From: Hemileia vastatrix
Taxonomy: Eukaryota > Basidiomycota > Pucciniomycetes > Pucciniales > Zaghouaniaceae
Assembly (NCBI GenBank): GCA_030280995.1
Contig: JASXTE010000009.1
Location: 3,571,001-3,635,000, forward strand
Reading direction: 5' to 3'
DNA length: 64,000 nt
In this document: piece by piece, positions 3,612 through 40,086 of the stretch
How positions within the stretch are numbered: position 1 is the stretch's first letter
Layout of the letters: the number at the start of each line of letters is the position of its first letter
The notes under the pieces: model-generated
What the model was told of the DNA's origin: nothing
What the model saw: only the letters and a program-made list of their open reading frames with translations
The model's database searches: none
Translations under genes and position numbers: made by a program

Positions 3612-3652
3612 CACCACAGAAAAAATGGGAGGGTATTGCTAGCAATACCCCT
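3612..3652 (+). repeat. Left terminal inverted repeat with hairpin
   Basis: CACCACAGAAAAAATGGGAG is followed by GGTATTGCTAGCAATACCCC, a near-perfect palindrome centred on CTAG. Downstream to about 3850 are repeated TTGAACTCC, TTGAGCTC and TTTGATCT-like words, resembling the subterminal transposase-binding repeats of CACTA elements. Confidence 0.85.
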
Positions 3653-6600
3653 TGCTTGAACTCCGTTGAGCCACAAATCTATGCTTGAATTATGCACACA
3701 TCATCACCATGTAGGAAATTGTTTGGCCTTACATTTAGTCAGAGATTTGTCACAAATTGAGCTCAAGATGAACCTACATTGATCACCGTTTGATCTTGTA
3801 AAATCCGAATTTGATCATCAGTTGAACTCCCTTTGATCTCACTTTGATCTAACATAAGCTTTTGCATATCCAATATGTCAACTATTCACTTTCAAAAAGA
3901 TTCGTAATGAATTTCACATGGAATATTAGAAACGAAACCAGTAATTTTGAGTAAATGGCTCATCAAAATGATTAATCTACAACAAAATACCATCAAAATT
4001 CAATCTGATTACTGAAAACTTTTGGTAAAATGACTAATAGATATTTAAATTGGAAAATAATATTCCATTTCTCAATTTCAAATTCAAAATATAAATCCTC
4101 GTTTGAAATGTGAATTTTGTAGATTCCTTGCCTTCCTATATTATGAGTAATATTTGAGGTATTTTACACCTTTGTAAATATGGTGTTGTGCTGCTAGAAA
4201 TTATCTCTGTTTCAATTCAACTTTATTGAAGCTTGATTCCAGAATGATACATATTTTATAACTATTTTGAGAAAAAAGTCACTAGTAATGAATTTAGCCT
4301 TTTATCTGTCCTTTATTAAACCTCACTTAATCCTACTTAAATCCAAATTGAACCACAAAAACCTTATTTGGGATATTTTTCAGCCCAGGATGATTCAAGA
4401 TTGGAGCAAAATATTATTTTAAATATCCAATATGCCTATTGATTAAATTTCTTCAAGCTTACTTTAAATTCACATTAACATTAACTTTCACAGGAAATAT
4501 TAAACACAAATCTTGAAAATATAGTATTTAAAATCATAATAAATATAATATAATATGCTTACAACAAAATTTTCTTTCTGGATTAATTGAAACAAAAAAT
4601 TGTTCATTTGTGAAAATAGAAAAAATACTATCCATCCTGAATTTAGAATTCATTTTTAAAAATTTAATGCCCCCTCACTTTCAAGTTTATCATGTATTTC
4701 AAAAATTATATTTTTAATAATTTTGTGAATAGTACACCTGAGATATAAACTTGGGGATATCAAAAACTAAAACATCAGCAAATTGAAATGTTTTTTATTG
4801 TTATGAATGGAAATAATGATTGAAAAACACCATTAGAGCAAGTTTGATTTTGAATAATAGGCATACTTTCTCATGTAAATTTCAATAAAAATAATTTTTA
4901 TTCTTACATAAGTTGCGGTGAATACATTTGAGCTCAAAAAGAATTAAAATTGACAAAATAAGACTTCTATAATTCATATTCAAAAATGAAATCACCCTTC
5001 ATTATCTACCTGTAAACTATTTTAAATTGAATAATTTCAAAGTCAGTATATACTGATGTTATTTTTTCTTCTAAAAAATTTATTATATAGATTAATAGTC
5101 ATAAACAGTTGACATAGATGTTAAATTTATATAAGCAATCTTTAATTCATAAAATGATAAAACTATCTTTTATGTAAAAAGTGATGAAGGAAAAAAATAT
5201 TATTAAATTTTTGATGCACTATCAATAAAATTGAAGATAGAGCATATCAAAAGTTTAAACTTAATTTCAATTTTGATATCATCATTTTATTTTATTTTAC
5301 TTGAGTAGAAAACAGATTTTAAATCTCAATATAATTTTAAATCCCATTAGTTTGTAGATTTCAACATTTGAAACTATGAAATAAATATTTATGAAAGAAT
5401 TTTACAATATTTGCCCTTCTAAAAACTCATAAATCCAACTTCAAATATTCTAACCTTCACAAGTAACCACAATGCATTCTGAAAATACTCTATATTTAAA
5501 TAATTAAAGGTAAATAAAATTATGTTTTTATTCTTTATTTCAATTTTTGATAAATAATATATATATATACATACATATATATATATATAATTTCTTAAAA
5601 AGTCTAAGAGGGAACTTAATAGTGGTTTTGGCATTAGATATATAGATTCAACTTTCAAAAAATTTGTTTGGAATAAATTACAAAGACAAAAAGGATATAT
5701 TTTGATGAAAGAATACTGATTTAGGTTCTCTTAAAATTTTATTAACCATTTTTATGGAATATTAATACATGGTTATCATTCTTTATGATATTATCATAGA
5801 ATTTTTTCCTTTTTTAATATAATGATTTTCTATTGTGTGGTATGTAGGCTAAGATAAGTTTAAAAGATTTATTGAAGATATATATACCAGAAACAGTATA
5901 ATCTGTAGATTTATAACTATAACTTACTTTTCTGATGTTTTACATCATTGATAAGTAGCTCATGCATTACACAAGTAAATAATTATAGTCTCTGGAAATA
6001 ATTCCTTGTGAATCTCAAATTTTTTGTTATTCTTAAAATCATTACTGAAATAAACTAAAAATTTCTTCAAATATTGATTGAAAGAAGGAGTTACAAAATC
6101 TTATTTTGTAGTTATAAAAGTTTGAGTTATTTTTCATATTATCAAGTATAATGAACATTTGTAAATTTTAACTTGAAAACTAGTGATCATAGCAAAGTAA
6201 TACTGGAAGAATCAGATAAAAAGGGTGGAATAAAGTCATAGCACAACAGGAAATGATACAAAATTGTTGATTTTTATCTCACAAAATTCAACATATTTTT
6301 AACATATTTTACCACCTTTAGATAATGTTTAGTGGATTTTAACATTATTATAACAAGCAAACTTAACAATGTTTTGATTTTTTTAACAAAAATAAATATT
6401 GTTAGATCATTTTTTTAAAAAATATGACTTATTTTTATGCTTTATCTACAATAGTTAGTAGTTTTTTTTTGCAGAAATTACTTGTTTTGATATTCTATTT
6501 TTTAATTTTTTAAGAGACTTCATTGCATTAAAGTTTTGTAATAATTTTTCATTAAAGCATGATATTTTAAATCTAGAGATTTAGTTTTGAAATAATATAT

Positions 6601-7299
6601 ATTTTCATGTTAATTGACTCATTATTTTTGAATCGATAAATTATGTTAAAATTGGGATTGCTTATTTCTAGTGAGTGTACATCATAGTTTGTTTTCAAAT
6701 CAAAGATTAATAAATGGTGAAATTTGGTAAAATTTTAAATATCTTTTAAACCTTTTTGATTTAAATAATGTTTAATGTTATGTAATCATTCTATAAGTAG
6801 AACACAGTTAAAATCTGATAATGGTACATTGCTTTCAATTTCTAATACTAAAATTCTATTCTACTTGAAACAATGTAAACTAAAGCTTGGTATCTCATAA
6901 GAAACTCACAATTTTCAAAAATCATATTTCCAACTTTTTAAACATGATACACATTAAAATATATTTTTAGAATAATTTCCTAATTAGTTTCAAATACTAG
7001 AAAATAATGAACTCAATTTATTTTAATACTTAAACCATTCTGATGAGTGAATTTCACAATCCTATAAGTAACATATGGTTACCATTTATACACATATGCA
7101 TGATTTCTCCTTTTGTTTAATTTTAGCTGAATCTAAAAAGTAAAATCACATGTTGAATATCATCTATAGATAAACTTCTTATATTAGAAGCTAATATTTC
7201 ATATGAGAAATTTGTTATTGAGTTTGGGAAACATTAATAAGTGTTGGGTATTATAATTGAGCCATTTATTCAAGTAAATAAAAAAGGATGACCTTCTAA

Positions 7300-7336
<37 letters not shown>

Positions 7337-13926: not shown

Positions 13927-16350
13927 TTAATTTATTGAAAGGCTATGTTTAGCAAAAAAAGGTGATACTGGCTGAATGGAGCTCCAGTGATTAAGAAAAT
14001 CTGCAGAAATAGCCCTAGCAATTCCCGGAGGACTTGGGGTATCAAATTTTAAAGGAAATGGATCACACTTGCCTATAAAAAGTTTTATTAATGTTAAAAT
14101 ATAGTTATTTAAATTTTTCCAAAATATTTCTTCCACCAAATGATTTTTTTTTTCATGTAAATTAAGAAACTTAACTTCTGATATTACCTCCAAGCAATCA
14201 GCTACTGAAGCCAATCTATGATCTTGAGAGCCCAGAAATAAACCACGGACACCATCGATTATATAGAATGTGAAAGATTGATATCGGTGGTGGGAGTATT
14301 CAGAATTTATTTTGTTTAGTGCAGACTTTTGTTTCTCTCTCATTATAGTCAGTTCAGTATTTTCGTTTTTCTCACTTGATTGTTGAGCTTCACTAGTCTT
14401 GCCACTTGATATTGTTGCAACACAATATTTTGATTTAAGAATGATAATTGACATAATTATATCAATGATAATATTGCTGATTTGAAGAAGAATTGACATT
14501 GATATATCACGGGTTTGAAGTGCAGTGGGACCAACTTCTAAGCCATCAGAAATCGGACTCTTCAGATTTGAAAGGTGAGCTAGAAGCTGAAGACCACGTT
14601 CAATTGGACAATCTGAGTTAATGTTTTGATGTGATGGAAGCTGGCTGAATTCATGTGCGGTCAGATAAAGTGAAGATGATATAAGAGATACCCATGAAGA
14701 ACGGCAGTGGTCACTTGGGATCATTAATCTCATGAGCATTCGGATAAGATTGGATTCAGGGTGATCCGCTTTCTTTGTTGAAGAAAGAATTTCAGTATTT
14801 AAACCATCAGGATCACATAAATCTTCCATTTTTTTGAAATCAATATTATCAAGTACCCATAGCTGTGAGCTATCAATCTCTAAAAAAATATTTGCTACAA
14901 AACGAAAAAAATAAGTAAAAGAACAAAAGTCAAGACTAAAAATTATGGTAACTTACATAACTCAGTAAGTTTTGAAAGCCAATCTTCTCCACAAGATTTT
15001 TCCCAATGAAAAGTAAACATTGGAATATTTGACATGGGTTCTTGGGAAGAAGTAGAAGAGCGTAATTCAAGGAGAGTAACAATTTCCAACCACAACCTGA
15101 GGACCTTTGCCGTGCTGATTCTACCTTTATAAAAATTATGAATTTTACAGAATTCCTCCAGCAAATCAGATTCTTTTAGAACTGAGGGTGAATAAGTTAG
15201 AGGTTTTTTAGATATCTTGATTGGAGTTGATTTCATTGGTAGAGAAGCTTTCAAAGTGGTCAAAGTAAGTAATTTAGGAGGTGATGGGTATTGCTTCTTA
15301 GAAATGAAGGAATTCGGTGATGAGCTGTTTGAATCATCATCTTTATCAAACATATCAACATGTCTTGAAGAAGATTTTAAACTTTGCTTTTTTTGATGAA
15401 CAAGCATAGCTTCATATTCTGACAGTTGATCATCGCTATTTTCATCGCTCTTTTCATCATCTTCATCAGGGAGAGGGCGTTTATGGATGGAACAATCTAC
15501 AGCAGGTGAGTTTCTGGTACAAAATATCAAAAGAAAGATAAAAAGTACAATATGTAAGCAATAAAAGAGATATATGATAGAATTTTAAAGATAAAAGAAT
15601 AACAATAAAAAAAAGGAAACAAGAATATACTCATTATCAAAACCTTTGCTTTTTTTTGAGATTTATTATTTGATACATCAGAAAATTCATTAGCAGAAGC
15701 CGGTTTAATACGTCAAACAAAAGAGGAGCCTTGGGATAATCTCTTTTTCTTGGAGCGGATAACAGGTGTTTCAAGATTTTCCTTAGAAGTTGAAGCATGA
15801 GTTAAATCTGATGGTTCATCTGTCTCATCATCATCCCTAATGACAATGATTTCATCAGGAGGAATCATACCCTCCTCATAAGCTACAAATATATATGAAG
15901 AAAAAAAATATTAATAATCTTATCTACTAATTTAAAAGGAGACAAAAAAGGTGAAGAACATACATTTTTCAAGGCTTTTCACATATTGGAGTAAGTCATT
16001 ACAAGGGTTAGATAAATATGAAGGAGAAGGATTATTGTTAAGGATCTTGACAAGCTCTTCTGTTTTATCTCTAGCCAATTCAAGTAAGTTGCAATACTGA
16101 ACTTTCGTTATTTCCTGCCTCTCATTGCTAAGTACAGGAGGGTTAGGTGCCATGCCATGTGGCAGACATGGTGCAAGCTCAAAAGCTTCAAAGCGAGTAT
16201 CAATCAGAGAGTGGGATGAAACACATTTGGGTGCTGGAAAATCAAATTCTTGAAAAAAAAGATATAGAACATAAGTGAAATATATAAATTAAGAGAGAGG
16301 AACATGATATACATACAAAGTGGAGGTGTAGGATTTTGAATGCTAGACAT
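13927..16350 (-). pseudogene. Unknown five-exon cargo gene with one in-frame TGA
   Basis: Hand splice model on the minus strand: exons 16317-16350, 15964-16233, 15631-15882, 14957-15496 and 13927-14894, introns 62-134 bp with GTAAGT/GTATGT/GTATAT donors and AG acceptors. The joined length is 2064 nt, exactly 688 codons, so the model is self-consistent. One TGA (15713-15715) interrupts exon 3 after GSSFV. Visible properties: an N-terminal helical stretch (ELARDKTEELVKILNNN), acidic and Ser-rich low-complexity segments (PDEDDEKSDENSDD; SNSSSPNS), basic KKKRL and KKAKV patches that could be nuclear signals, and a C-terminal 320-residue region with mixed hydrophobic helices (ISNIIIDIIMSIIIL). I do not recognise the family. 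Its position between TET-like gene and palindrome array makes it a candidate nuclear or DNA-binding accessory protein, but that is inference. Confidence 0.6.
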
Positions 16351-17384: not shown

Positions 17385-19320
17385 TTAATTTCTATCGAAA
17401 TTAATTTTGAGACTAGCATATTGAATTTTAGCTATGACCAAGTACTGTAAGTGCCATGGTTTGTATTCAATATATTGGTGTTGAAATTAATTTTGATAGG
17501 AATCAACAAGTATCATATGGCACCATGCATGAAACACTGACAGAAACCATCAAATTTATGAGGCAATGAACCTCATAATTTCGATCGAAATTAATATAGA
17601 CCCCTGCATATTGAATACAAGCCATTTCACATGGACTACACAGACATAGATAAAATTCAACATGCATGGCTTAAAATTAATTTTGATCGAAATTAACCAA
17701 GGCATTAAAACATCAATTTTTATATGGTGTACTTGATCAAACCAGTTTATCTAACTGCTTAGCTTACCTATACTTATAGGAATTTTATGCATAGTCCATG
17801 TCCATATTAATTTCAATCAAAATTAATGTTGACTAATACATAATGAATACATGCTATGCCACTTACACTTGCCAGGCATAGCTACCATTAAATATGCCAG
17901 TATCAAAAATTAATTTCGATTGAAATTAATGAGCATGATAATCATGAATTTCTGGAGTCAACTGCTTATTTTTGTGCATGGTGCCTTGCCAACATTAATT
18001 TCGATCAAAATTACTTTTGATACTGGCATATTGCATGTATATATGCCTGGAAAGTGTAAGTGGCATAGTGTGTATTCATTATGTATTGGTAAACATTAAT
18101 TTCGATCGAATTTAATGTTGACATTTGCATATTGAACCCAAGCCAGAAAACAACCCAGAAGATTCTTCATAAAACTTCCCATTAATTTCGATCGAAATTA
18201 AGGCTGACCATATACATATTGAATGGTAGTTATATCTGGTCTGAGTAAGCGGAGATTACTTATATTCAATATGTATTGGTCAACATTAATTTTGATCAAA
18301 ATTAATGAGCATTTTGATCATGAACTTTTTCAGTCAGTTAGTTGTTTCAATGCATAATGGCATGCCAACATTAATTTTGATCAAAATTAATGTTGAAATG
18401 ATATAATGCTTTTTTGCATGACATGTAAAGGACGGCAAGTATTTTTAAGTATTGAAATTTACTATACATTTTGAGGGTAAATATAAAATTTACATATCCA
18501 TATTAATTTCTATAAAAATTAATGTTGACCAATACATAATAAATAGTAAATATGCCTGGCTAGTGTAAGTGGCATAGCTTTTTTTCAATCTGCACTTGTC
18601 AACATTAATTTCAATCGAAATTAAGGTTCATGATTATCATCAATTTATTCAGTCAGTTGCTTACTGTTATGCATGGTAACATGTCAACATTAATTTTAAT
18701 AAAAATTGAATTTGACATGCCACCAAGCATTTTTATGTAAGATGAAAAGTAGGGCACTATATTGTTAAGTAAACACATTACAATGCATATTGAGCATGTA
18801 AATATCATTTACACATTAATATTAATTTCAATCAAAATTAATGTTGACCAATAAACATTGAACACAAGCTTTACAACTTACACACACCAGATATAACTAC
18901 CATTCAATATGTATATGGTGCTCACTAATTTCGATCGAAATTAATGAGCAGTTTTATGAAGAATTTTTTGGGTTGTTTGCTGGTTTGGGTTCAATATGAA
19001 AATGTCAATATTAAATTCTATTGAAATTAATGTTGACCAATACATAATGAATACACACTATGCCACTTACACTTTCCAGGAATAGACACCATGCAATATG
19101 CCAGTATCAAAAGTAATTTCGATTGAAATTAATGTTGGCAAGGCACCATGCATATAAATAAGCAGTTGACTCCAGAAATTCATGATTATCATGCTCATTA
19201 ATTTCGATCGAAATTAATTTTTGATACTGGCATATTTAATGGTAGCAATGCCTGGCAAGTATAAGTGGCATAGCGTGTATTCACTATGTATTGGTCAACA
19301 TTAAATTCGATTGAAATTAA
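17385..19320. repeat. Array of about 20 palindromes TTAATTTCGATCGAAATTAA
   Basis: About twenty near-palindromic sites recur every 75-135 bp: near 17385, 17485, 17577, 17668, 17806, 17910, 17994, 18094, 18181, 18285, 18370, 18504, 18604, 18690, 18822, 18925, 19012, 19113, 19196 and 19301. The centre varies (CGATCG, TGATCA, CAATCG, CAATCA) but the flanks AATT.../...AATT persist. The spacers are repeats too: the segment 17805-18115 reappears as its reverse complement at 19014-19320, with words such as CTATGCCACTTACACTT and ATGCCAGTATCAAAA in both arms. It lies in the gap between the start of the five-exon gene and the 3' end of gene A. No coding capacity. Confidence 0.9.
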
Positions 19321-21195: not shown

Positions 21196-21288
21196 AATGA
21201 ACTGTAATAAAATAAAATAAAATAAAAATAATCAGTTGTTAAAATTTATACCTATCAAAGCTAAAGTAAAAAAAGATACTATGTATAT

Positions 21289-22789
21289 TGTCAGGCTAAG
21301 GTAAAGTACAAGGACATGAACTAGCTTGAATAGTCAGTTGTCTAGAAGATTTTAATGGTCCTATATGAATACTGCAGTTTTAATCCACTAAGTTGTAAAA
21401 TATAATCAAATATAAAGGTCTCAGTAATATAATTCTCACTATTCTTATATATGGCTTACAATCTTTATAGTTGGTAGAAAAATAGATTATATAAATTCAG
21501 ATACTATTCAAAAGTCTTATAAAAGTACTAATTGATATGTATTGTAATTGATTTGGTTATATTGGTTAAATTGTAATGATAAAGAATGAAGAAATACAAC
21601 CCAAAAACCTCCTCCTTTTATACACACTGAGTTCCCCAATGATTCCCTTGATGTACCACCCAATACACAGTTAATGACACCTCTAAACAACTAATAGACA
21701 TGCCCATCAACATTCCTAGTAACCCATGACATAATTAGAAGAGTAACAACCGCCAAAATCCTATAATAATAAGGGAAATCCATCAAAATTAAAGAAAAAG
21801 ACAAAAAGAGAGTATATGCATATAAAACAATAATATTAAAGACTAAAGGAGACTTTTTAAGGTTAATAATAGCTTAATAATAAGGGGGATTGAATGTAGA
21901 AATAATGGGGCTAATCCTGACATTATACTATGTGAAATTCCCATTCAAAAATAACCAAAATTGACTGAGAAACCACCCAAAAACTTAAAAAAGAGCGTGA
22001 GATGTGGGGTAACTACATGCAGTTCTTGGCAGGCGCTTGCACGGGTAAATCCTTGACTAAAATTAGGCGAATTTAAGCGTGGTGATGAAATAAAGTGCCA
22101 AGAGTGAGGTTATTAATGAAATTAGTGCATATAAACAAGGTCAATGCATTATTAATTAAGCTAGGACACTAAATAAGCGCCTGTTGCCTATTTTAGTGTG
22201 TTTCCCCACAGTGGGCGTAGAATGTGGGTTAATTATAGTGTGAAAAAGCTAACTTTGCTAAAAATGAAGCTATTCACATGGGAAAAAAGCAGGCAGTATG
22301 TGGCCAGTACACAGATGCCATTTCTGGCATAAAAAACACCAAATTTGAAAAGTGTTATTTTTATGCATTTAAATATCCAAATAAATAGTTCTAAATGAGC
22401 CAAATTGATCTGTCAAAGCGCAATTTTGATATTCTCAATTTTATAGCGCATATAGTCAACTTTTAAGTGAAATAAAGCGCATTTCTTGTTTTTTGCATAA
22501 AACAATGAATATAACAGCTTTAAGTGTACTTAAAAATTATGTAGCCTTCTACTTAAGGTTCTTAAGATTACCCTAACATATTCCAACTTAATATTAAGTA
22601 CATAAGACCTATAAAAGGTGGATATATGCGTGTATATAAGGTGTTATAATGGCATTTTTTGTGTATTATCATAATTTTACTTATGTATACTATTTGTGTA
22701 CTCTTATTTATTATTCCCATGTATAGTTCATGTGTTTAACATAACTTATAATTACTTTTTACTCAGTCCTGGAGATATACAGGCTGACA
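21289..22789 (-). repeat. 3' LTR of chromovirus 1
   Basis: 1501 bp, TGTCAG...CTGACA. The end at 22769-22789 contains the hairpin CCTGGAGATATACAGG close to the terminus. A purine-rich tract lies at 22790-22808 on the minus strand (TTTTGGGTGGGCGAG), as expected for plus-strand priming. Confidence 0.93.
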
Positions 22790-22969
22790 CTCGCCCACCC
22801 AAAAAAAACAATAAAAAAATGATAAGTTATACATTTTATTTTATCAATTTGTAATTTTCAGGTATTCAGAATAAATCTGTAGCATTAAAGATTCAACTTT
22901 AAAGAAATAAAACATAATAAAATATTATGAGTACTGGTTTTTTAACCCCTCAGCTGGTTGAACAGAAAT

Positions 22970-25900: not shown

Positions 25901-28228
25901 TAGAGAGATTTTCATCTCATGGTCTTTGACCAATCCTAGTTCATTTGATCCATGAGCGAATGCCATAGGATATGATTTAATCAATCTCAAAATGTCTTCT
26001 TGTTCAATTTTTGAGAGTTGAGGACTGAAAGAGGCCTTTTGGATTTCATTTTCCAATTCACCCACTTCATTGGTGGTTCTTCCACCTTGAAGTTGTTCTT
26101 CTCTAGGAGAAATGGCATATACTGAATTTTCAGAACATATTTTGAATTTTCTTTTACCATTCACCCCTATGGTGAAAAAACTGTTTGCAGGATCTAGTTT
26201 AATGCCAAATTTTGTCAATAAATCATTGCCAATAATAAACCAATCACTACAATTATTATTATCCATTACTACAAATTCACAAACTGCTCTAACATATCCA
26301 TTAATATATTTAAAGAATACAGCAGTTTTGTATTTGCCAATTGGATTTAATACTGAACCAAAACCCCTCCAGTTCTTTGTCTGAACAGGTTCTAGTTTTT
26401 CCTGGTACTTACTATCAAGTTTCATTAATGCATTAAGTGAAACTACACTACCTGCAGCCCCTGTGTCAAGAATGGCATACATTTCTTTTCCACATATGAT
26501 AATAGGTGCTCTGATAGGTGTTATTTTGTAAGTGTCATGAGATACATCTTTGATTATTTCAGCTTCCTCTATGGAAGTTAAAGATGTGTCTGTATGAGGT
26601 ATAGCATCATTCAGGAACATTATATCCTGTTCTAATACAAATATCTCATTTTCATCATCACTGTAAGATATTTTACTTTTGCAATCCTCACTGGATTCCA
26701 CATTCTCATCTTCATGATTACTAGGTTCAGAATTCTGTGAGGTTTCAATAACATTTATTCTTTTCTTACACCTGTGACCTTTAACCCAAGGTTCATTACA
26801 TTTGTAACAAGTGTTATTTTCTTGTCTCTTAGGGACAAGGGGAGCTGAAGGTTTTTTCTTTTCCACTGGTAACTTACTTGTAGTAGGTTTTACCACGTCA
26901 ACACTTTGTTTGTAATTACTATACTTGGTTTCATACTTGTGGTTTAATAATATCTCATTGCATATATTAATGAATCCAGAGGTGTCTCTGACAGTCTCAG
27001 TTCTAGCTACAATAATGTCTCTAACTGATATAGGCAACTTGTATATTATTTTTTCTTTCCACTCTTCATAATCCATTTTTGGATCCATAGCTTTCATAAT
27101 TTTTATTAAATTCATTAAGAAGACCATGGGTTTATCTCCAGCATTTGGATTATATCTGGCCCTTTCATACAGTCTTTGTTGAGTGATTCTAAATTTTGGG
27201 CCACCAAATTGCCTTTCAATTAGTGCCTTCCATTCATTCCAGGAGTAATTAATTCCCTCAATCAATACAGATTCAAACCATAATAAGGCCACATCTGTAA
27301 ATAAAGATATTAACTTTGAAGTAATTTCTTCATCAGGTAATTTATATGAAAATTTTAAGTTATCAATTCTTTGTATGAATTGTTGCCAATCAGATTTTGA
27401 AACCCCGTCAAAAGAAGGGTACTGATCTAACTTAGGCCAGTTCTTTTGGCTAGTTTTAGCTTCCCTAACCTGAGGAATATTGAGTAATTCACTCACTTTA
27501 GAAAGATGATCATTAATTTCATCTTTTACTGATTTTATATTCTCAGAGCCCATGACACTATGTTCATGTTCCATCATTGGTTTATCATCAGAGTGTTTCA
27601 TAAAAACTGGTACTCTTTCTACATAAGAGGTATTATCCTTTATTGTTTCAGTATTTTTCAAAATGTTAGCTACTTCAATTTCTACTCTTTGTAATCTATC
27701 TTTTATTACAGGTACATGAGTTAAAGTATCATTTACATTTGAAAAAGACAATTTTACACGTCCCTCTATGGTGGCCATAATATTCTGAGAATGTTCTAAT
27801 TTAATTTCTAAATTTTTAATCTCAGAATTTAATCTTTTGTTTTAATTGATCAATTCATTATTTGAATTCTCAATAACTTTTAACTTATTGGCTGTTGTAC
27901 TCAATGATTGTGTGATGTTTAATAATACACTTTCTGTATTATTGTTGGACTCTCTAGAGAATTCTTCCAATTTTTCAATTCTTAATAATAATTTACTAAT
28001 TATTTTTGATTCCATTGGATTTTCTTTCAGAAAATATTCAATTTTTTCTGTTTCCAATTCAGAAGATTCATCATCAGGGTCAATTTTTATTTCATTTGAT
28101 TCCATTTTTATATTAATAGTATTTTCCTGGTGATCAATAAAACTATGTACATTATCCTCATGTAATGACAAGTCTAACATGTTATTTTCAAATGAATAAT
28201 TTTTAAAATCCTTATCAATTATATCCAA
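22970..28228 (-). pseudogene. gag-pol: Gag-Pol polyprotein of chromovirus 1, two in-frame TAA codons
   Basis: One frame runs from 28228 to 22970 (1753 codons) and is broken only by TAA at 27842-27844 and 24617-24619. Order of domains on the minus strand: Gag capsid (WPKLDQYPSFDG region, about 27430); zinc knuckle CYKCNEPWVKGHRC (about 26770-26812); aspartic protease ILDTGAAGSVVS (about 26440-26475); reverse transcriptase with YIDD (about 25396-25410); RNase H LYTDASF (about 24950); integrase with HHCC zinc site (24110-24270) and catalytic D,D,E region (VIVDRLTKM, ISDRDPRFTSEF, QTDGLAER); and a C-terminal chromodomain (EYLLRFKGKSNEFDKWIPE, about 22990-23060). The second TAA falls at the RNase H/integrase boundary where chromovirus 2 has TCT. 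The chromodomain places it among Ty3/gypsy chromoviruses, which target marked chromatin. Confidence 0.93.
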
Positions 28229-28392
28229 TAACTCTCTATCAATTTAATTACCTATAAGTAATTCATTGTTAGGATTATATAATTGATCTTGAGAAGATGG
28301 ATGACTTACCACGGTCTTATTCCATTTCCCCTGCCTCTCCTTGGCTTTCCCCTGTAAGGGTGACTGCTGGATCCCTGTTGAGGAGGACTGTT

Positions 28393-28755
28393 TTAGTTTT
28401 GGGCATACCAATCCCACTTCCATTTGCTTACAGTTATCTTTTTGTCCTCTTCTGGGACTGGAGGTGTTGCTGTGGTATTTGGTCCCACTGGTTGTTGATG
28501 AGACCTTATATCCACTAGAGCCTGGTTGACTTCTATAAAGCCCTGTGCCGCCCTTTTCTCCAGATTGTTGATCTGGTCTAACATATTGTTTACTCTTATT
28601 GTTAGTGTATTCAGTAGGGTTGAGAGGGAGTGAATTTGCTCTTGTAAGGTGTTTTTGGACTTCTTTATTGACATTTGTTTTAAGAGCTTTTCCTTTTCCT
28701 CCATGGACATTGGTGGGGTGTTGTTTATTGTTACTGGTGATTCTTGACCCTCCAT
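28393..28755 (-). CDS. Coiled-coil ORF upstream of gag, chromovirus 1
   Basis: 120 codons, starting MEGQESPV and ending KWKWDWYAQN. Heptad-like Leu/Ile spacing (LQEQIHSLSTLLNTL, VNNMLDQINNLEKR) predicts a coiled coil. The same features, MEGQ/MEGK start, SMSIEEKE-like block, GF..MNQAL and KWKWDWF, occur in the corresponding positions of chromoviruses 2 and 3, so this frame is under protein-level conservation. A longer overlapping frame (28244-28843, MCDNNDIVSNKAKPYNLRTR start) covers the same DNA. Which frame, or which spliced mixture, joins to Gag cannot be settled here. Confidence 0.6.
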   Translation of the reverse strand: MEGQESPVTINNTPPMSMEEKEKLLKQMSIKKSKNTLQEQIHSLSTLLNTLTIRVNNMLDQINNLEKRAAQGFIEVNQALVDIRSHQQPVGPNTTATPPVPEEDKKITVSKWKWDWYAQN

Positions 28756-28843
28756 TTGGATGTCCTGTAACAGGTCTTTCAGCTCTAGTTCTTAAGTTAT
28801 AAGGTTTTGCCTTATTACTTACAATGTCATTGTTGTCACACAT

Positions 28844-29366
28844 TTTTACGTGGAATTTTAGAGAATTGAAAGTTTAGATTTGAAAAACTTCAAAAAGGAG
28901 TTTAATCAGTATTTATTATTACCACTGAAGACAATTTTATTGCTTACTTATTGGTATTAAGTGAATTTTTAAGTGCCAAAAGTCAAATATGCTTTTATGT
29001 GGTCACTTGATTTAACTGGTCTACAATATGTAGCCGTGTATTTATATTTAAAAAAGAAAATTTGTTAGTAAGATTCTTTCTAAATATTAAATGAATTTTA
29101 CAAACCAATAAAAGGGATTAAGAGTCCTGTAAAAAGAAAACAATTAATCAGTTTAATTGGTTATTATCTGCAAAAATCACAAATTTAATTGGTCTATTGA
29201 CAGACTCCCACTAAGAACAATTATATGTTAAATTAGTGGTAAAATTGATGATTCAATATCACAATTTTATTATATAACAGGGCTTCTTTTTCTAAAATCA
29301 CTATATAAGTGACCCCAACCTGTTGTAATTATCCAAATATTTCTATAGGGATATTATTTACCCAAT
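28844..29366 (-). other. 5' untranslated leader and primer site of chromovirus 1
   Basis: Between the first ORF and the 5' LTR. Adjacent to the LTR the minus strand reads ATTGGGTAAATAATATCC. TGG two bases inside the LTR edge is typical of a tRNA primer-binding site, but I cannot assign the tRNA. Confidence 0.5.
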
Positions 29367-30867
29367 TGTCAGGCTAAGGTCAAGTACAAGGACGTGAACT
29401 AGCTTGAATAGTCAGTTGTCTAGAAGATTTTAATGGTCCTATATGAATACTGTAGTTTTAATCCACTAAGTTGTAAAATATAATCAAATATAAAGGTCTC
29501 AGTAATATAATTCTCACTATTCTTATATATGGCTTACAATCTTTATAGTTGGTAGAAAAATAGATTATATAAATTCAGATACTATTCAAAAGTCTTATAA
29601 AAGTACTAATTGATATGTATTGTAATTGATTTGGTTATATTGGTTAAATTGTAATGATAAAGAATGAAGAAATACAACCCAAAAACCTCCTCCTTTTATA
29701 CACACTGAGTTCCCCAATGATTCCCTTGATGTACCACCCAATACACAGTTAATGACACCTCTAAACAACTAATAGACATGCCCATCAACATTCCTAGTAA
29801 CCCATGACATAATTAGAAGAGTAACAACCGCCAAAATCCTATAATAATAAGGGAAATCCATCAAAATTAAAGAAAAAGACAAAAAGAGAGTATATGCGTA
29901 TAAAACAATAATATTAAAGACTAAAGGAGACTTTTTAAGGTTAATAATAGCTTAATAATAAGGGGGATTGACTGTAGAAATAATGGGGCTAATCCTGACA
30001 TTATACTACGTGAAATTCCCATTCAAAAATAACCAAAATTGACTGAGAAACCACCCAAAAACTTAAAAAAGAGCGTGAGATGTGGGGTAACTACATGCAG
30101 TTCTTGGCAGGCGCTTGCACGGGTAAATCCTTGACTAAAATTAGGCGAATTTAAGCGTGGTGATGAAATAAAGTGCCAAGAGTGAGGTTATTAATGAAAT
30201 TAGTGCATATAAACAAGGTCAATGCATTATTAATTAAGCTAGGACACTAAATAAGCGCCTGTTGCCTATTTTAGTGTGTTTCCCCACAGTGGGCGTAGAA
30301 TGTGGGGTAATTATAGTGTGAAAAAGCTAACTTTGCTAAAAATGAAGCTATTCACACGGGAAAAAAGCAGGAAGTATGTGGCCAGTACACAGAAGCCATT
30401 TCTGGCATAAAAAACACCAAATTTGAAAAGTGTTATTTTTATGCATTTAAATAGCCAAATCAATAGTTCTAAATGAGCCCAATTGATCTGTCAAAGCGCA
30501 ATTTTGATATTCTCAATTTTATAGCGCATATAGTCAACTTTTAAGTGAAATAAAGCGCATTTCTTGTTTTTTGCATAAAACAATGAATATAACAGCTTTA
30601 AGTGTACTTAAAAATTATGTAGCCTTATACTTAAGGTTCTTAAGATTATCCTAACATATTCCAACTTAATATTAAGTACATAAGACCTATAAAAGGTGGA
30701 TATATGCGTGTATATAAGGTGTTATAATGGCATTTTTTGTGTATTATCATAATTTTACTTATATATACTATTTGTGTACTCTTATTTATTATTCCCATGT
30801 ATAGTTCATGTGTTTAACATAACTTATAATTACTTTTTACTCAGTCCTGTAGATATACAGGCTGACA
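29367..30867 (-). repeat. 5' LTR of chromovirus 1
   Basis: 1501 bp, nearly identical to 21289-22789. Its terminal hairpin reads CCTGTAGATATACAGG, a better palindrome than in the other copy. It should hold the promoter for minus-strand transcription. Confidence 0.93.
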
Positions 30868-31205: not shown

Positions 31206-34200
31206 CTACAAATTTCCCAAATCCCAAATTAACACAAAGATGTTAGTCAACAGAAAATAAATTTGATTAATTTTTTCACTCACTACTTTCTGCAGTCCAA
31301 TGGCAGTGACAACCTCGTCTTTGATTCCAAACATTCCTTTTTTGTGCTCGACAGTAGCTGCATGTCCAATTATTGCATCTTTCTTAATCACAATTTGAGT
31401 TGCTTTGGCTACTATAACTAACCGACAATGCACTTGTGGGAAAAGCTCATAGGGAACCTTTGATGTTTCTTCTGGACATAGCTCCTTGAAAGGACTTACT
31501 ATTAAATATATTTGATCAATCTCTTCCTTTGATCTGAAAAGATCATCAATTTGCCCAAACTGGCTATCTTTTCCATAGTAGAATTCAATTGTTGAATTAG
31601 CAATGTGTCAATGGCAACCAGTAAACCTCTTTCCATGTATCAATATGCTTGCTACATTTTCAACTACCCGATCCCCACTTTTCTCCGATGGTGTCAAAGC
31701 CCGTCTTGAAGTTTCTTTTCCCATTCGTGCCCTTACCCATTTAGTAAATAATGCCATACTTAGATGGATCCATTTGTTTTGTTTATCGAGATCAATATGT
31801 ATTTTTTTAGTCTCACATTGATCATTATCTTCAGCTTCACCAAGATCTAATACCCTAGACTTCCGATACCAATGTTTGAGCATTGTTAGCGGTATCTCTC
31901 CTGTGGTAAATATTAATAAATTAGCACAGCTGAGTTTTTAAATCATTGCTTACAAACATTACATACGTGGATGGTGACTGTTTGGAATTTCAGATAATAT
32001 ATGATTCACCCGCTCTCCAGACCAAGTAGCTGTACCTGATGGTGGACCAAGACGCTTTATCATTTCAGGATAATGTTGAGTGATATGCAGATTTGGCTTT
32101 GCATTAATATTCTTCCAACCCTCTTCAAGGCACTCACGATACTCTAACAGAAATTGATCTAGATCTTTAAGCTCATTAGTCTGTATATTTTTTAATGTAA
32201 AAAAATGGTGATCAAGCATAATGTTACAAGTGACTTGAGAAGATAATATTCTCTTGGTTTATCAGCTGAGGAAGCTGAAGATTCAGATTCTTTAAATTTT
32301 TCAAACCAAAGGGGTATAAGTGACAAAGGGAAGTAGAGAGTATACAGCATGTGCCATTCTGCTGCCTTGAGGGATCCTGCCTTTTTAGATCCTACTGATT
32401 TTGGAACTCGTGTTAGCCAGGAAGGTCTTCTTACTTGATCAATCATCTTCCATACAACCTTTAGCTCTGCTGCTGTGATTCGTGGATTACTACTACCTTC
32501 ATTTTCTTTCTCCTTACCTTTCCTTTTATTTTCTTCATCTCTAGCTGTCTCATTTGATGAGTGAGATCCTTCACTCTGTGATATGCTAATGCTTCTTTGC
32601 CTTAAGTTATACAATGAATTCCTACTGTCACTGCTGTGAGACTGTATTGAGGCCAAATCGCTATATGGAGGAATAAATTTGGAGCTGGATGACCTACTCT
32701 GGCTTCTTGATCGATTTGTTCCCAATCCTTCATTATCTAGTCCATGATGACTTGATGACTGTCTTGAACTCGTACGTCTTTGCCGCTTGTGCTGTCTCGT
32801 GTGTCCTGTATCATCATCATCATTATTCGTGGTGCTTAAGCTACTTCTACATTTTTTCGAATGTTTGTGCAGTGAAGTATCAGAAAAGAAATCATCATCT
32901 TCTTCTCTTACATGCAATTTTTATCCTTTTCCAGCTTTCTTTCTAGATCTTTTGCTGCATTTTGGATTTGAAAATAGCTTAGACTGTGATCTTTTAGGTT
33001 GCCAAGCATATGTGAATGCATAACATCAATTGAGCAATATTCAGTTGGACGCCAATATTCAAGGTTATTCAGCTCACTCCATCGTACCCCATGATTTTGA
33101 ACAATTGATACATGCTCCCAATGTGACTTAGAATTTTTCCACTTTGTTGCCCAGCACATATGATCCTCATGATTCCGTAATGAAAAATTTCCCACATTCT
33201 TTTCACTAATTTCATCTTTAGAGATATTACAGAAAGAGCAGAACATTTTTGCAGAGTGACTCAAAAAGCCAGCCTATTTTTGTATTGCAGGAATGTCACC
33301 TATCAAAGAGAACAATGCAACTCTTAATTTACGGCCTCGTGGATAAAGATGTGTCTTTTCAATCAATATAACATCCCATAGAGTTTGTAGATCATTAACC
33401 AGTGGTTTTAGAAGGTGATTAAGCTGTTCACTTGTGGGTTCTGTTGGTCCAGGTATAATAGCATACAAAAGAAGATTTTCCATTTTGTATCTATCTTCTT
33501 GAGGTAGGTTCATACACACCATCAGAATATTGCATACAGACTTCTGATGACCTCCAATCCTATTGCCACCAGGCCTAAACCAGTCGACATATAAAGTAAA
33601 CATTAAGTTGCCTGAAGTTATCGTATATTCATCATCATTGCTATCCAGAGCTGGAGTGGTTATAGGAAAGTTTTTCCAAATTGAACCATCACAAACATCC
33701 TTCATCAAATCACACTCTACACGTTCTGCCACAGGGGTTTTCTTCTCAATCAGAAGCTCAAATTTGAACAGTTTGATCTTTTCCTTAAGCCAGTCGATAA
33801 AAGAATGGTGATGAAATGTTTTAAGAGATAAGTATTTTACATGTTCTTGATGTTCCTCCATCAAATACAGCCTTTCATCACATTTAACTGCAATTTGTCC
33901 TGCTCCAAACATTTTTAAATAGCGCTTTGATGATGAAAGAAACGGTTGATTGCAACATAGTATAGATGGTTGAGATTCAGAGTTATACTCATAAAGAGCA
34001 AAGCATTTAGGACAGCATGTTTTAGTGAAAAATAATTGATTGAGCTTTAATCGACTAAAAACTGTATCTATCAAGCGTGGGACCATGCGGACAATGCTAT
34101 CAGAATCCAGTATTCCACTATCACCTAGAAGTTTGAGCTTCTTAATTTCTTCATCCAAAAATTGAGTACAACCTTCTTTGCTCAAATGATGAATAAGAGA

Positions 34201-34582
34201 AAGCTTTGCTGCCTGCCACATAATTATTTGGCTATACCGTTCCCCAAGATTTGAGTTTCTAGAGACTGTTGAAGATACTTCTGCCCCCAATAGCAACTGC
34301 ACCTATGTAATAAATCATTGAAACATCATAAAGACTTTTATTCTCACATTGAACTATAGATATACAGCTTACTGTTTCTGTGGAGCTGGAACTTCCAATG
34401 TTAAGTGGATTGTTGGAAGAAATAACCATCTGGGCCTTCCTATTTCTTTCCTCTTGATGTTTTGCATAAGAATTAGAGCTTTTGAAAGCCATACCAACTT
34501 CAAAGGACCCAGAAGAAGTTTGATACTTTCTATTGACACATCCAAGATCTTGACATTGACATACATGAAAAAATGGAGGCAT
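31206..34582 (-). pseudogene. Tnp2-like (CACTA) transposase, broken
   Basis: Exon 1 is 34373-34582, intron 34303-34372, then a long exon from 34302 to about 31967, intron 31901-31966, and a last exon from 31900 to about 31206. Tnp2 features: N-terminal Cys motif CQCQDLGC, zinc-like CCPKC...CC, the core LMFTLYVDWFRPGGNRIGG, LLLYAIIPGPTEPTSEQLNH, SIDVMHSHMLGN and, downstream, PNLHITQHYPEM with WSGERVNHIL. A Ser/Arg-rich insert (about 32500-32900) separates core and C-terminal parts. It would cut and join the CACCACAG ends of the host element. Breaks: TAG at 33274-33276, a one-base frameshift near 32910-32925, another discontinuity near 32190-32220 and TGA at 31608-31610. The transposase type agrees with the CACTA-like ends and 3-bp target duplication. 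Confidence 0.85.
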
Positions 34583-35658: not shown

Positions 35659-36779
35659 ATGAACCCTAGTAGCTCTTACTTTCCTCATGGAAACATGCCC
35701 ACAAACACAAGAACACTTAATAGAATTTTTAATGAGACTTTGCCTCCATTCAATTCTCACTTTTGTAGATCTATACACAATTTTTGTCGTTCACTTTTGG
35801 ATATGTCACCAGAATCAAATGGATGGAAACAAAACCCTACTGAAGAGCAATTAGACAGATTTTCATCATTCGACATGAATTCTTGCAACATTGCCTTTGA
35901 ACTACCTCATCCAGAATCAAATTCAGCGGTTTCGGAAAAGTTTCCACCAATTTTACGTGAATCTTTTATTGAGCACCTTTGCATGTGTGGTTTCCCAGGA
36001 TCAACTTTCCCTTGGAACCTAGATTGGTTTGACAAATGGAACCAGGTCTTGGCAAATATTCTCATTAAACACTGGGACAATGCCTTAAAAAACAATAATT
36101 TGATTGCATATCCAATTGACTCAACTCAAATTAGCTTCTCAAATCAAATAGGAGTTCTTCTCCATTGGTTTTTAGGTCATGCTGATAGATTAAGACTTGG
36201 GAAGGATTCTCATAGCTCTCAAGAAATAATCAAAGTGAGAAAGCATAAATATAGAATAAAAAAAAAGTATGAAAATCCCTTTTTTTTCAAACATTTTTAT
36301 TTATGACCTTTATTTCAAATAACAAAGATTCTTAGAATTCAGTTAACCGAACTAAACTTCTTAAACAACTTCCACATTGTGAAACTTATCACAACCTTTT
36401 CACAAACATCAAGTGTTGTTCAGACACCGAAATTGATAATGATGGATTGTTAAGACGTATCTTAATGCAATGGAGGTCTGAAGATTTTTCTAAAGTTGCA
36501 CAATATCTTGACCAACAACACTTTGATATTCGAGATAATTCAACCTACTCTGGAAGTGTGCTAAAGGACTTTGCCTTGTACAAAAGAATTAGTTTGGTTT
36601 CAACATTATCCCCTAACCTTAATCCTTCTCATGTCCCCCGGGGTTTGCCGAATGACTGTTATTCTCCCTTATATCTTTCATCTCTAAATCCTCAACAACT
36701 CAAACTTTTAAATCCTCAAAATCCCATAAATTTACCTGCTCTCCTTGAAATTCTTTCTTCCTCTAATGTGAGTGATTGA
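35659..36779 (+). CDS. Gene B: intact unknown cargo protein, relative of gene A
   Basis: Exon 1 35659-36234 (192 codons), intron 36235-36335 (GTGAGA...TTAG), exon 2 36336-36779 ending TGA: 339 residues with no interruption. Starts MNPSSSYFPHGN. Block 1 (FPPILRESFIEHL to WNLDWFDKWNQVLANILIKH) aligns with the middle of gene A. Block 2 (NPSHVPRGLPNDCYSPLYL) aligns with NVPKYLPKNCYSATFL at the gene A C-terminus. In both genes an intron sits between these blocks. No catalytic motif recognised. It may be a structural or DNA-handling accessory of the transposon, but this rests only on location and duplication within the element. Confidence 0.75.
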
Positions 36780-36911: not shown

Positions 36912-39191
36912 TTACATTGTTAGCTCCATTTTTTTCCTTTGAATCTTATACATGCTGAATTCTATACTTCCTTGTACAAAATAATTCAAAACATTTACTT
37001 CATTTTGCTGCCCCATTCTATACAGCCGATCAACAGCCTGTTGCTCAACTTCTGGATTCCAATTTGGCTCCTATTTCAACATTGAACATATAAAAAATTT
37101 AATATTTTTGTTCTTAATATGAAATAAAAGACATTGAGCTCACCATTATATATACATTTTGAGCACACCTGAGATCTTTACCCACTCCTGCAGCCTGAAT
37201 CGTTCCAACCAAAACTTGGCAATTTTTATTAAAATGGAATTCATGCATATTTTTTTCTCGCTTTGTCCTGCTGAGTTCACCCGTAAGCTGGGTATACCTA
37301 ATATTGTGGTCATCTAAAGCCATTTTTATTCTATTTTGAAATATTAGAAAATTGTTTTTAATAAGCCAACACAATTTTGTAAAACAATTCATTATAGAAT
37401 CACTTACATCTGCAAAAAGTCTGCAAAGTTGGAGAATATAACAGCTTTTGGAAAATTTATACCCCTTTCACCAGACAAAAAGTTTTTTAAGTGGCCTATA
37501 AGATGACAAATCTTTGCGGAATGCTGCCAGGTGAAATCAAAAGTTGGAGTTTCATCCAGATTTTTGTAGATTGGATGGTTGCAGAATTTTCTTAAAATCA
37601 TCAGCTCTCTTAGAAACTCAGATGAGTCCCAAGGGAAGTCAGTGCTTCTGGAGGGCCCATATCGCTCAGTGAATCCTTCTTGAAGCACATCAAGTTTAGA
37701 CCTCCATGGATCTGCTAATTGAACCAATATCCCCCTTTGAATCTTTTTTGGAAGAGACAAAATTGCATCCTTTGTTCTATGTAGGCATATGACTTTCATT
37801 AAGTGATTGATTGATTTAATAGAATTAGCCTTTCCTTTTTGCAAACCTGGAAAAAGGAAATTCTTCCATAACCGGTCTTCTTGCCACTTTTCGATTCTAA
37901 GAAAAAATATGAGACTTTGAAGGTCAGTGGGCCTGTTCTGAAGTGGAGTTCCAGTCAAGCATAGTTGGTGTTGGGATTCCAAGTCAAATATTGTTTGAGC
38001 CCTCTGCGAGTAAGGATTTTTAATGTAACTAAAAGAATATTTATAAAAATTGATTATAAAAATTAAGTTTTAAGTTTTAGATATAGAAATGTGCACTAAC
38101 TGAGCTTCATCTAAAACAACTCTATACCAAAAGAGCATTTGAGTCACCAGTATCTTTTTTTGGCTTTGATTTTTTGACATCGTTGGGCTAGCTATTTCAT
38201 AGGTTGTTAAAACAATAGCAGTGTCCTGTAGCTCATTGACATTAGTATTTTGACAATCCTTCCCATAAAGAACCTTGAAAGGAAGCGCATTATCTTCAAA
38301 GTGCACACTTATTTCATTGATCCGATTCGATAGTGTTGCCAGGGGGCATATAATCAGTGTGGCTGAGCTCCGATTAATACCTTCTTGATTTTCTGATACC
38401 TGGAATTGTCTTGCTTCACCTTGAGTTGCACTTATAAGAGAAAGAGTTGAAAGTGTCTTTCCCAAACCCATATCATCGGCAAGTATTGACCCGTTTCCTT
38501 CAGGCGTTAATTGATTGTTAGGAAACTGATCTTTATAGTCATTGAATACAGTTCTAAGCCAATGGTTGTCCTGGTGCCTCCACATGATATCCAACTTTTC
38601 CTTTAACATTCGTTCATTGTCAATCATAAAATTTATTGCTTGAAGTTGATGTGTTTTGAGAACTGTTTTGATTCCTCGGATAAGTTGATCAGCCTTCCAA
38701 TCTTGAGTACTCTGAGATATTTGGAAAGAGCCTTCAAAAATTACATGCGGGATATTAAAAAAGATAGTGGAGTCGTAGTTCAGGATTGGACATAAATTGA
38801 TTTGAGCAGAAGAAAATGCTTCTTTAGCAATACTGATTAGTGTACTTGAAGAAAAGAGGCATCCCCAAAGTTGATACTGATTACCAAAAACTGGAACCAA
38901 GTAAGCATGAAAATAGAAAGGCTTCATAGGATTCAAGGCACTGCTTTGGTTTAAATGGTGAGATCCAGAGCCAATGTCACCCAATAGTGGTCCAATGTTC
39001 TGACTCTGCACTTGAGAAAGATTACCGACAAGGGTTGGTTTTCTTTCTTCAAATAGTCCAAAAATATGAACATTCAAATGGCCTCGCTGTAAAATCGTGG
39101 GGGTCGGTGAGTTTTGAAATCTTGAAATTACATTCATATAAATTTGATTGATTGTTATTGAGAACTTTCCAACACATCTGAGACTTGACAT
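36912..39191 (-). CDS. SNF2-family ATPase/helicase-like protein, intact
   Basis: Hand model: exons 38101-39191, 37408-38028, 37144-37330 and 36912-37070, introns of 72, 77 and 73 bp, giving 2058 nt and 685 residues. Motifs in order: ADDMGLGKT (Walker A, about residues 238-246), ICPLATLSN (Ia), VVLDEAH (about 358-364, the His codon formed across the first splice junction), CLTGTPLQN (about 387-395), KAVIFSNFADFLQ, VLVGTIQAAGVGKDL and QAVDRLYRMGQ (about 643-653). This is the Rad5/Rad16/HLTF-like type in outline, but I see no RING finger between the lobes. Such proteins use ATP to move along DNA or remodel nucleosomes. A GTAAGC overlaps the stop region, so a further small exon is possible. It converges with gene B. 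It could help the element reach or remodel chromatin (inference). Confidence 0.9.
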
Positions 39192-40044
39192 ATTAAGTAA
39201 GAATAGTATCTGAAGATAGTGGTTGTTAAAAGATGAATTGAAGCAAAAAATGAATAATCAGTTTTGAATAAAACGACAAAATAACTTTTTAGCATATGCT
39301 ATGCTAAGCTCATATTTCTTTCACATGTATTATTATTATATTTTTAATAAATATTGGAAGTAAATCAATGATAACTGAAATGAATAATATGGCTTAAAAA
39401 TAAATCTTGAGCCTATAGAGTAAATTTTGGTTTGTGGAGGAAGAAAAATTTTCTCAATAAAAATGTGCTTTATTGTTACATTATAATCACAAAATAGAAT
39501 AATTTCACTCTTATTACACTTATTTATGTTTCTGTCTAATAGTAAAATGCTTTAGATGTCAGTTCAAAATCCAAATTGAAACTACTACCTAGAACGATGT
39601 CTTGATACTAACATACTTTTTGTAAGTCTTTGGACAGACACTTATGGTGATCTCAATAATATTAAAATTGATTTGAATTGTATGTTTTATCAAATATCTA
39701 TGTAGTATAGTGTAATAATTGAGATACTACAGTTTAACCTTCTGTTACCAACTTGGCAAGAAAATATATGTAGATATTCTTAGAAGGAATATCAAATTTT
39801 GCTTTCCACAAGATGGGAAAGTGAATATTATGATATGTTAAGTGATATGTTCAAGCTTTTCTCAATCTGTGCTCAGCTCAAAATCAAAGTAATCACCAAG
39901 CTCCAAGAAACCTGTGATTGAGTTTAGTTGAACCTAGGTCTAACTGATTACCAAATCTTTGTCCAATTAATTTAAATCTGGTTTCACAATGAACTCCCAA
40001 CAGCCTTCCAACAGCTTTCCAACCACTTCCCAACATTTTTAAAT
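39192..40044. other. Right subterminal region of the DNA transposon
   Basis: No gene. The last 250 bp contain words complementary to those at the left end: GCTCAGCTCAAAATCAAAGTAATCACC (about 39872-39898) matches the sense of the left-end TTGAGCTC...GATCACC...TTTGAT series when reversed. Such clustered motifs fit transposase-binding sites. Confidence 0.5.
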
Positions 40045-40086
40045 GAGGGGTATTGCTAGCAATACCCCCCCAAATTTTCTGTGGTG
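40045..40086 (-). repeat. Right terminal inverted repeat with hairpin
   Basis: Reading inward on the minus strand: CACCACAGAAAATTTGGGGG, then the palindrome GGTATTGCTAGCAATACCCC, as at the left end. AGA follows at 40087-40089. Confidence 0.85.

What the first reader, a model, noticed from the sequence alone, without database searches (positions are those of the whole stretch)
3612..40086. A 36-kb CACTA-like cargo transposon proven by a split LTR
Seen: inverted CACCACAG ends with identical internal hairpins, AGA on both sides, and the two halves of one family B LTR outside them (522 + 575 bp versus 1144 bp in the intact solo copy). Established: CACTA elements have CACT-type ends, 3-bp duplications and Tnp2 transposases. 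Inference: the unit without the nested chromovirus (about 26.9 kb) moved as one piece and carries a transposase, TET/JBP-like oxygenase, SNF2 ATPase and three unknown proteins. This combination in a CACTA-type element appears unusual; TET/JBP linkage is best known for KDZ transposons.
Basis: partly seen in the sequence, partly recalled or inferred. Interest (0 to 1): 0.92.

Follow-up and report, generated by a model that had tools for sequence, protein, structure and literature searches.

The report
Giant rust-fungus transposon carrying chromatin-opening genes
This is a 27-kilobase jumping gene, present in roughly a thousand near-identical copies in what looks like a rust fungus genome, that carries an enzyme family able to erase DNA methylation marks and a chromatin-remodelling motor beside its own transposase, so it may carry the tools to escape its host's silencing.

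Summary
CACCACAG ends with a 22-bp palindrome lie at 3612 and 40086, flanked by AGA. The same end motif occurs 2,232 times in the host assembly (747.6 Mb; reversed-pattern control 0), so about 1,100 copies, an estimated 4% of the genome. All 58 other end loci held lose similarity at these boundaries, 55 within 1 bp and 58 within 9 bp. A complete 26,967-bp copy elsewhere has the same genes in the same order. Twelve of 13 copies with both flanks read have matching 3-bp duplications. One copy lies precisely inside a gene of an older sibling. The window copy is this element (26,891 bp) with a later 9.6-kb retrotransposon inside. It carries a Tnp2 transposase, a Tet-like oxygenase, an SNF2 ATPase and three unknown proteins, two of them paralogous. 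TET-bearing EnSpm/CACTA elements are already published from rust fungi (PMC12730594), so that pairing is not new. New, as far as I could search: the SNF2 gene, the copy number at this length with no short derivative in the sample seen, and an internal palindrome array. The window copy's transposase and oxygenase frames are broken.

The parts
3609..3611 (.). left target-site duplication AGA
40087..40089 (.). right target-site duplication AGA
3612..3652 (+). left terminal inverted repeat (41 bp) with 22-bp palindrome 3630-3651
   Evidence: boundary shared by 29 of 29 other left-end loci held (26 within 1 bp, 3 within 9 bp)
40046..40086 (-). right terminal inverted repeat (41 bp) with 22-bp palindrome 40047-40068
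   Evidence: boundary shared by 29 of 29 other right-end loci held, within 1 bp
3090..3611 (+). left part of the host LTR (family B) that the element split
   Evidence: 58% identity
40090..40661 (+). right part of the same LTR
   Evidence: 71% identity
11217..13127 (+). Tet-like 2OG-Fe(II) oxygenase gene, three putative exons (about 11217-11239, 11905-12343, 12400-13127); this copy has an in-frame stop and Tyr in place of the motif His
   Evidence: PF20515 E 2e-20; exon limits read by eye
13927..16350 (-). unknown gene C, several exons
   Evidence: no Pfam match above cut-off for the two exons searched; present at the expected place in 5 of 5 copies probed
17385..19320 (.). array of 18 sites of the palindrome TTAATTTCGATCGAAATTAA (3 or fewer mismatches), mostly alternating spacings of about 103 and 85 bp
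19536..21195 (-). unknown gene B, paralogue of gene D
   Evidence: its long exon found no relative in the protein search
21289..30867 (-). later nested chromovirus-like LTR retrotransposon (LTRs 98.9% identical), not part of the element; TATAT duplications at 21284-21288 and 30868-30872
31206..34582 (-). transposase (Tnp2/Transposase_21); in this copy interrupted by in-frame stops and frame changes
   Evidence: PF02992 E 4.5e-11
35659..36779 (+). unknown gene D, two exons, paralogue of B
36913..39191 (-). SNF2-family ATPase (motifs DDMGLGKT, DEAQ, QAVDRLYRMGQ read by eye), several exons; limits approximate
   Evidence: PF00176 E 3.5e-25 and 4.4e-22

Best explanation
It is an autonomous-type EnSpm (CACTA superfamily) cut-and-paste DNA transposon of about 27 kb that recently multiplied to about 1,100 copies in a rust-fungus genome and brings its own desilencing enzymes. 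Proposed mechanism: the Tnp2 transposase binds and cuts the CACCACAG ends and inserts with 3-bp duplications (ends, duplications and transposase motifs are shown; catalysis is inferred from the family). The Tet-like oxygenase oxidises 5-methylcytosine in element copies and the SNF2 ATPase opens their nucleosomes, so that transposase genes and ends become accessible (inferred from domain families; no activity shown). The unknown paralogues B and D, or C, may be DNA-binding partners, possibly for the CpG-containing palindrome array (speculative). After insertion, copies are methylated, mutate at CpG and decay neutrally, as the window copy has.
For: 2,232 end motifs, control 0. Common boundaries in 58 of 58 other end loci held. 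Complete 26,967-bp copy with the same genes and an ATT duplication. Matching 3-bp duplications in 12 of 13 pairs with both flanks read. Of 20 left ends, 13 have their right end within the stretch 26.6-27.35 kb away. TET at the expected place in 16 of 20 copies. Genes C, B, transposase and D present in 20 of 20 probes in 5 copies, chosen from the full-length ones. SNF2 frame open from start region through the ATP-binding motif in 21 of 30 copies. The majority TET exon is open, so source copies probably carried an intact exon. CpG decay: 90 of 148 C>T changes at CpG, which is 38 of 594 C dinucleotides; 48 of 68 in the TET region. Precise insertion inside a sibling copy.
Against: No activity, expression or methylation data. 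Changes in the TET exon fit neutrality (24 synonymous, 58 non-synonymous, 8 stops; expected 18.6, 60.4, 7.4), so selection on TET after insertion is not shown. Strong CpG decay means the cargo does not protect copies for long. CpG depletion is general in this window (observed/expected 0.11-0.34 over the large regions, 0.17 in the nested retrotransposon, which has no TET). The window copy's transposase and TET are broken, and some copies lost either TET motif residue.
Confidence: 0.6

Rival explanations
1. The element is real and mobile, but TET, SNF2 and the unknown genes are captured passengers carried along with no effect on its spread.
For: TET exon changes are neutral after insertion; PMC12730594 concludes that TET genes pass passively between transposon families (section read); a good part of the copies have broken cargo.
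Against: Cargo is complete in the 5 copies probed (20 of 20 probes); none of the 38 adjacent opposite end pairs among the first 100 listed ends is shorter than 25.8 kb, though internal deletions do occur (loci L094 and L099); the majority TET exon is open.
Confidence: 0.2
2. The unit is a chance nest of several mobile elements that share outer ends, later co-amplified; TET and SNF2 belong to other transposons nested inside.
For: 8 kb of gene-poor AT-rich sequence on the left, an internal repeat array and a GC-richer patch near 9.6-10.2 kb suggest a patchwork origin.
Against: Copies keep one gene order at 97-99% identity. Apart from the chromovirus I noticed no second set of ends inside, but I made no separate search for them.
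Confidence: 0.08
3. The oxygenase makes a signal rather than erasing one: it converts element DNA into an oxidised base that recruits its own transposase or a partner protein.
For: JBP relatives start the synthesis of base J (introduction of PMC12730594); the internal palindromes carry CpG pairs.
Against: No reader domain was recognised by Pfam in the ten pieces searched; no data on modified bases.
Confidence: 0.07

Closest known systems
TET-bearing EnSpm families of rust fungi (Kojima 2025, PMC12730594; parts 1-4 of 7 of the text read: abstract to the first part of the discussion, with figure legends; supplements not readable here)
   Same: Tnp2-type transposase, CAC..GTG ends, 3-bp duplications, TET/JBP gene, rust host
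   Different: SNF2 has 0 occurrences in its main text; sizes, copy numbers and accessory proteins of its EnSpm families are not given in what I read; its supplementary sequences may contain this or a sister family
Plavaka elements (PMC12730594)
   Same: related transposase clade, some carry TET
   Different: ends TGT..ACA or CATCA..TGATG; no TET-bearing Plavaka was found in rusts by that paper
KDZ transposons (Dileera, Kyakuja, Zisupton; PMC12730594)
   Same: carry TET/JBP in basidiomycetes
   Different: different transposase; 7-8 bp duplications
Large plant CACTA elements, e.g. the 20.5-kb soybean Tgmt* (PMC2613891, abstract read)
   Same: large autonomous-type Tnp2 element
   Different: no TET or SNF2 cargo named in the abstract
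JBP2 of kinetoplastids (recalled, from no call)
   Same: unites TET/JBP oxygenase and SNF2 ATPase
   Different: one fused host protein, not two transposon genes

Membership tests
EnSpm/CACTA superfamily (fungal, as defined in PMC12730594) | 5'-CAC..GTG-3' ends | tested here: met
   CACCACAG..CTGTGGTG
EnSpm/CACTA superfamily (fungal, as defined in PMC12730594) | 3-bp target-site duplications | tested here: met
   12 of 13 pairs with both flanks read: window, C34 copy (43), six, two, two of three
EnSpm/CACTA superfamily (fungal, as defined in PMC12730594) | Tnp2 transposase | tested here: met
   PF02992 4.5e-11; 8 of 9 protein hits carry PF02992
EnSpm/CACTA superfamily (fungal, as defined in PMC12730594) | D, D, E with C(2)C and H(3-4)H between second D and E | tested here: met
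   VDWF, GDIPA, CSFC, HITQH, SGER read by eye; assignment not checked against a reference alignment
CACTA in the literal sense | terminal CACTA | tested here: not met
   ends are CACCA
EnSpm/CACTA superfamily | subterminal repeats bound by an accessory protein | not tested
   short repeated motifs near both ends seen by eye only
TET/JBP oxygenases | membership of the Tet-like 2OG-Fe(II) sequence family | tested here: met
   PF20515 2e-20, 74 bits against a cut-off of 27; a fold model was too poor to use and no solved TET matched by sequence
TET/JBP oxygenases | HxD..H iron ligands | tested here: met
   in the family, by motif and by eye: of 17 copies covering it, 14 keep the first His (2 of these have Asn for Asp), 2 were not readable by my pattern, the window has Tyr; one of five aligned exons has Asn for the second His (L087)
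Plavaka | TGT..ACA or CATCA..TGATG ends | tested here: not met
KDZ | 7-8 bp duplications | tested here: not met
   3-bp duplications, 12 of 13 pairs

The most novel reading that the evidence does not exclude
The element carries a self-desilencing kit: TET demethylation plus SNF2 remodelling act with the transposase, preferentially on full-length copies, which is why a 27-kb transposon reached about 1,100 copies without the usual flood of short non-autonomous derivatives; the CpG-bearing palindrome array is the recruitment site that marks complete copies.
Probability: 0.2. Interest if true: 0.85.

Novelty: new variant of a known kind. Interest (0 to 1): 0.62.

Why it matters
It gives a clear, high-copy, recent case for asking whether transposon-borne TET and chromatin remodellers help an element escape methylation, a function that PMC12730594 says has not been validated by experiment. 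About 1,100 copies with different lesions in one genome are a natural experiment: methylation, accessibility and age can be compared between copies with intact and broken TET or SNF2. It also identifies one DNA transposon family as an estimated 4% of a large, probably rust, genome.

Tried and rejected
Structure: an AlphaFold2 model of the TET exon from 5 near-identical copies reached mean pLDDT 44 and was not used. Protein search with the long exon of gene B: no relative at E <= 0.001. TET exon against solved structures: only one chance match. Linking SNF2 and transposase through neighbouring locus tags in Puccinia failed: of 9 transposase hits, 8 carry no species name and one is from Coprinopsis cinerea. 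A search of the own genome for all Tet-like genes (PF20515) never got an answer, nor did a protein query for the same purpose, so I cannot say whether TET genes exist outside this family. Rejected: chance ends (control 0), Plavaka and KDZ membership (ends and duplications differ). Austropuccinia psidii as the host looks unlikely from size alone (about 1 Gb per haplotype, PMC12774611 passages, against 748 Mb); I did not identify the species.
Full report
What was checked. The inverted CACCACAG ends, the internal palindromes and the AGA duplications are present as described. Over the first 41 bases the two ends agree at 38 positions. The two LTR parts outside align collinearly with the copy at 57935-59078, at 58% and 71% identity, so the LTR argument is good but not strong on its own. 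Inside lies a 9.6-kb LTR retrotransposon, 21289-30867, with TATAT duplications and LTRs differing by 17 substitutions over 1,503 positions. Without it the unit is 26,891 bp.

Genome-wide test. The assembly that holds the window has 747.6 Mb in 791 contigs. A 35-base end pattern with up to 2 mismatches matches 1,107 times forward and 1,125 times reverse; the reversed-pattern control matches 0 times. That is about 1,116 copies, or 30 Mb if each is full length, about 4% of the genome (an estimate). DNA searches with the right and left 0.3 kb each returned 40 scored matches, 99-100% identical, from 1,233 and 1,494 first-look candidates. I held 30 of 40 loci of each set. Of the 29 other right ends, 29 stop matching the window within 1 bp of 40086. 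Of the 29 other left ends, 26 stop within 1 bp of 3612 and 29 within 9 bp. Over the 1.8 kb held inside each end, copies differ from the majority by 0.4-1.7% (30 right ends) and 0.3-1.1% (29 left ends; L035, partly misaligned, left out). These sets are the best-scoring matches, so divergence is biased low.

Complete copies. The copy at C34:16324414-16351380 is 26,967 bp, flanked by ATT, aligns along its length apart from the chromovirus, and has the same genes in the same order. For 20 left ends I read 751 bp at the predicted right end: 9 held the right-end motif (lengths 26,675-27,135); 4 more matched the window up to 40084-40087; 2 reached only 39646 and 40001 within the stretch and so look slightly longer; 2 showed interior sequence there, consistent with extra insertions; 3 had no match. 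Target duplications agree in 12 of 13 copies with both flanks read; the exception is AAA/AAT. The copy at C42:227652-254520 sits inside gene B of an older sibling: with the element and one CCT removed, the flanks join without a gap at the junction, 393 of 428 positions identical to gene B and its upstream stretch in the C34 copy.

Spacing. Among the first 100 ends listed, 38 adjacent pairs face each other as left and right; 21 are 26.9-27.4 kb apart, 8 are 27.5-31.5 kb, 6 are 31.5-50 kb, 2 exceed 100 kb and probably are not pairs, and the shortest is 25.8 kb. So no short non-autonomous derivative was seen. This covers 100 of 2,232 ends and would miss derivatives with changed ends. Internal deletions do occur: 2 of the 20 left-end copies read at the TET position showed element sequence from further inside there (L094 and L099), and their right ends were not found at the usual distance.

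Genes. Pfam gives Transposase_21 (4.5e-11), Tet-like 2OG-Fe(II) oxygenase (2e-20) and SNF2 (3.5e-25 and 4.4e-22). The transposase motifs named by PMC12730594 for the wider clade are present by eye in the C34 copy. Transposase relatives in the protein database reach 36% identity; 8 of 9 carry no species name and one is from Coprinopsis cinerea. For SNF2, every species-named protein among the best 48 of 131 hits is from Puccinia, and these 48 are 28-43% identical, with many paralogues in P. triticina. That points to a rust host and to an SNF2 family that has multiplied there too; whether those copies lie in transposons I could not test. Unknown proteins B and D are paralogues (22% identity over 270 aligned positions, E 3.6e-10 in a one-to-one comparison). 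The long exon of B has no relative in the protein database at E <= 0.001.

State of the copies. TET is at the expected place in 16 of 20 copies, one of them interrupted. In 17 copies whose stretch covers the motif, window and C34 copy included, 14 keep His in the presumed iron motif (2 with Asn for Asp), 2 were not readable by my pattern, and the window has Tyr. One of five aligned exons has lost the second His. Counts of synonymous, non-synonymous and stop changes in the last TET exon (24, 58, 8) are close to a neutral expectation (18.6, 60.4, 7.4), while the majority exon is open (2 of the 17 stretches cover the exon or gene only in part). SNF2 is open from the start region to the ATP-binding motif in 21 of 30 copies, the window included. 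The window's transposase frame is interrupted by in-frame stops and frame changes; the C34 copy has its own stop at another place. I did not look for a copy with an intact transposase.

Mutation pattern. In the right-end set 90 of 148 C>T or G>A changes fall at CpG, although CpG is 38 of 594 C dinucleotides. In the TET region it is 48 of 68, with CpG 34 of 408. The left-end set agrees more weakly (27 of 112, CpG 14 of 451) and includes the partly misaligned locus L035. This is the mark of methylated CpG decay. Such decay is reported for transposons of Austropuccinia psidii (PMC12774611, passages read), and the window as a whole is CpG-poor. One retrotransposon LTR pair shows the same tendency (4 of 7 transitions at CpG) and another does not (1 of 12). 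So copies are probably silenced despite TET; any benefit must be transient or limited to young copies.

Palindrome array. Between 17385 and 19320 there are 18 copies of TTAATTTCGATCGAAATTAA with up to 3 mismatches, 0 expected, mostly at alternating spacings of about 103 and 85 bp, and the C34 copy has the same array. Genome-wide there are 2,540 exact sites, control 0. Of the first 50 listed, 37 lie inside paired element spans, 9 within 20 kb of an unpaired end, 4 elsewhere. It is thus largely a feature of this family. A binding array for an element protein is a guess.

Literature. PMC12730594 (parts 1-4 of 7 read) reports TET-bearing EnSpm families from rust fungi with CAC..GTG ends and 3-bp duplications, and SNF2 occurs 0 times in its main text. 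Searches for SNF2 with EnSpm, with fungal cargo transposons, and with Pucciniales and dioxygenase gave listings in which I saw no paper describing the combination (listings are partial, for example 8 of 11 and 20 of 62). The supplements of PMC12730594 could not be read, and the 2014 paper on TET/JBP and KDZ transposons is not held, so the SNF2 pairing may be recorded there.

Verdict. The finding is correct in its anatomy and in its main inference, and stronger than its author could show. The TET-plus-CACTA pairing is known. The SNF2 partner, the copy number at this length and the lack of short derivatives in the sample make it a new variant of a known kind. The self-desilencing mechanism is the likeliest reading but rests on domain families alone.

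Noticed in passing
17385-19320: Array of 18 near-copies of a 20-bp palindrome with CpG at its centre, 188-bp double unit, largely confined to this element family (2,540 exact sites genome-wide; 46 of the first 50 in or near elements).
   Followed up: partly
57935-59078: Solo LTR of family B with matching 5-bp duplication TAAGT.
   Followed up: partly
44210-53731: Second chromovirus-like element, LTRs 96.6% identical, coding frames interrupted; only its LTRs were compared.
   Followed up: no
9590-10180: GC-richer patch of short inverted repeats inside the element's AT-rich left arm; the C34 copy breaks alignment there.
   Followed up: no
L049 / G000:C42:227652-254520: A young copy inserted precisely in gene B of an older, 92%-identical sibling element, so at least two waves of this family exist.
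   Followed up: yes
L027 / G000:C26:45271411: A copy whose outer flank looks by eye like the transposase gene of another copy (self-nesting), about 46 kb from the next facing left end.
   Followed up: no
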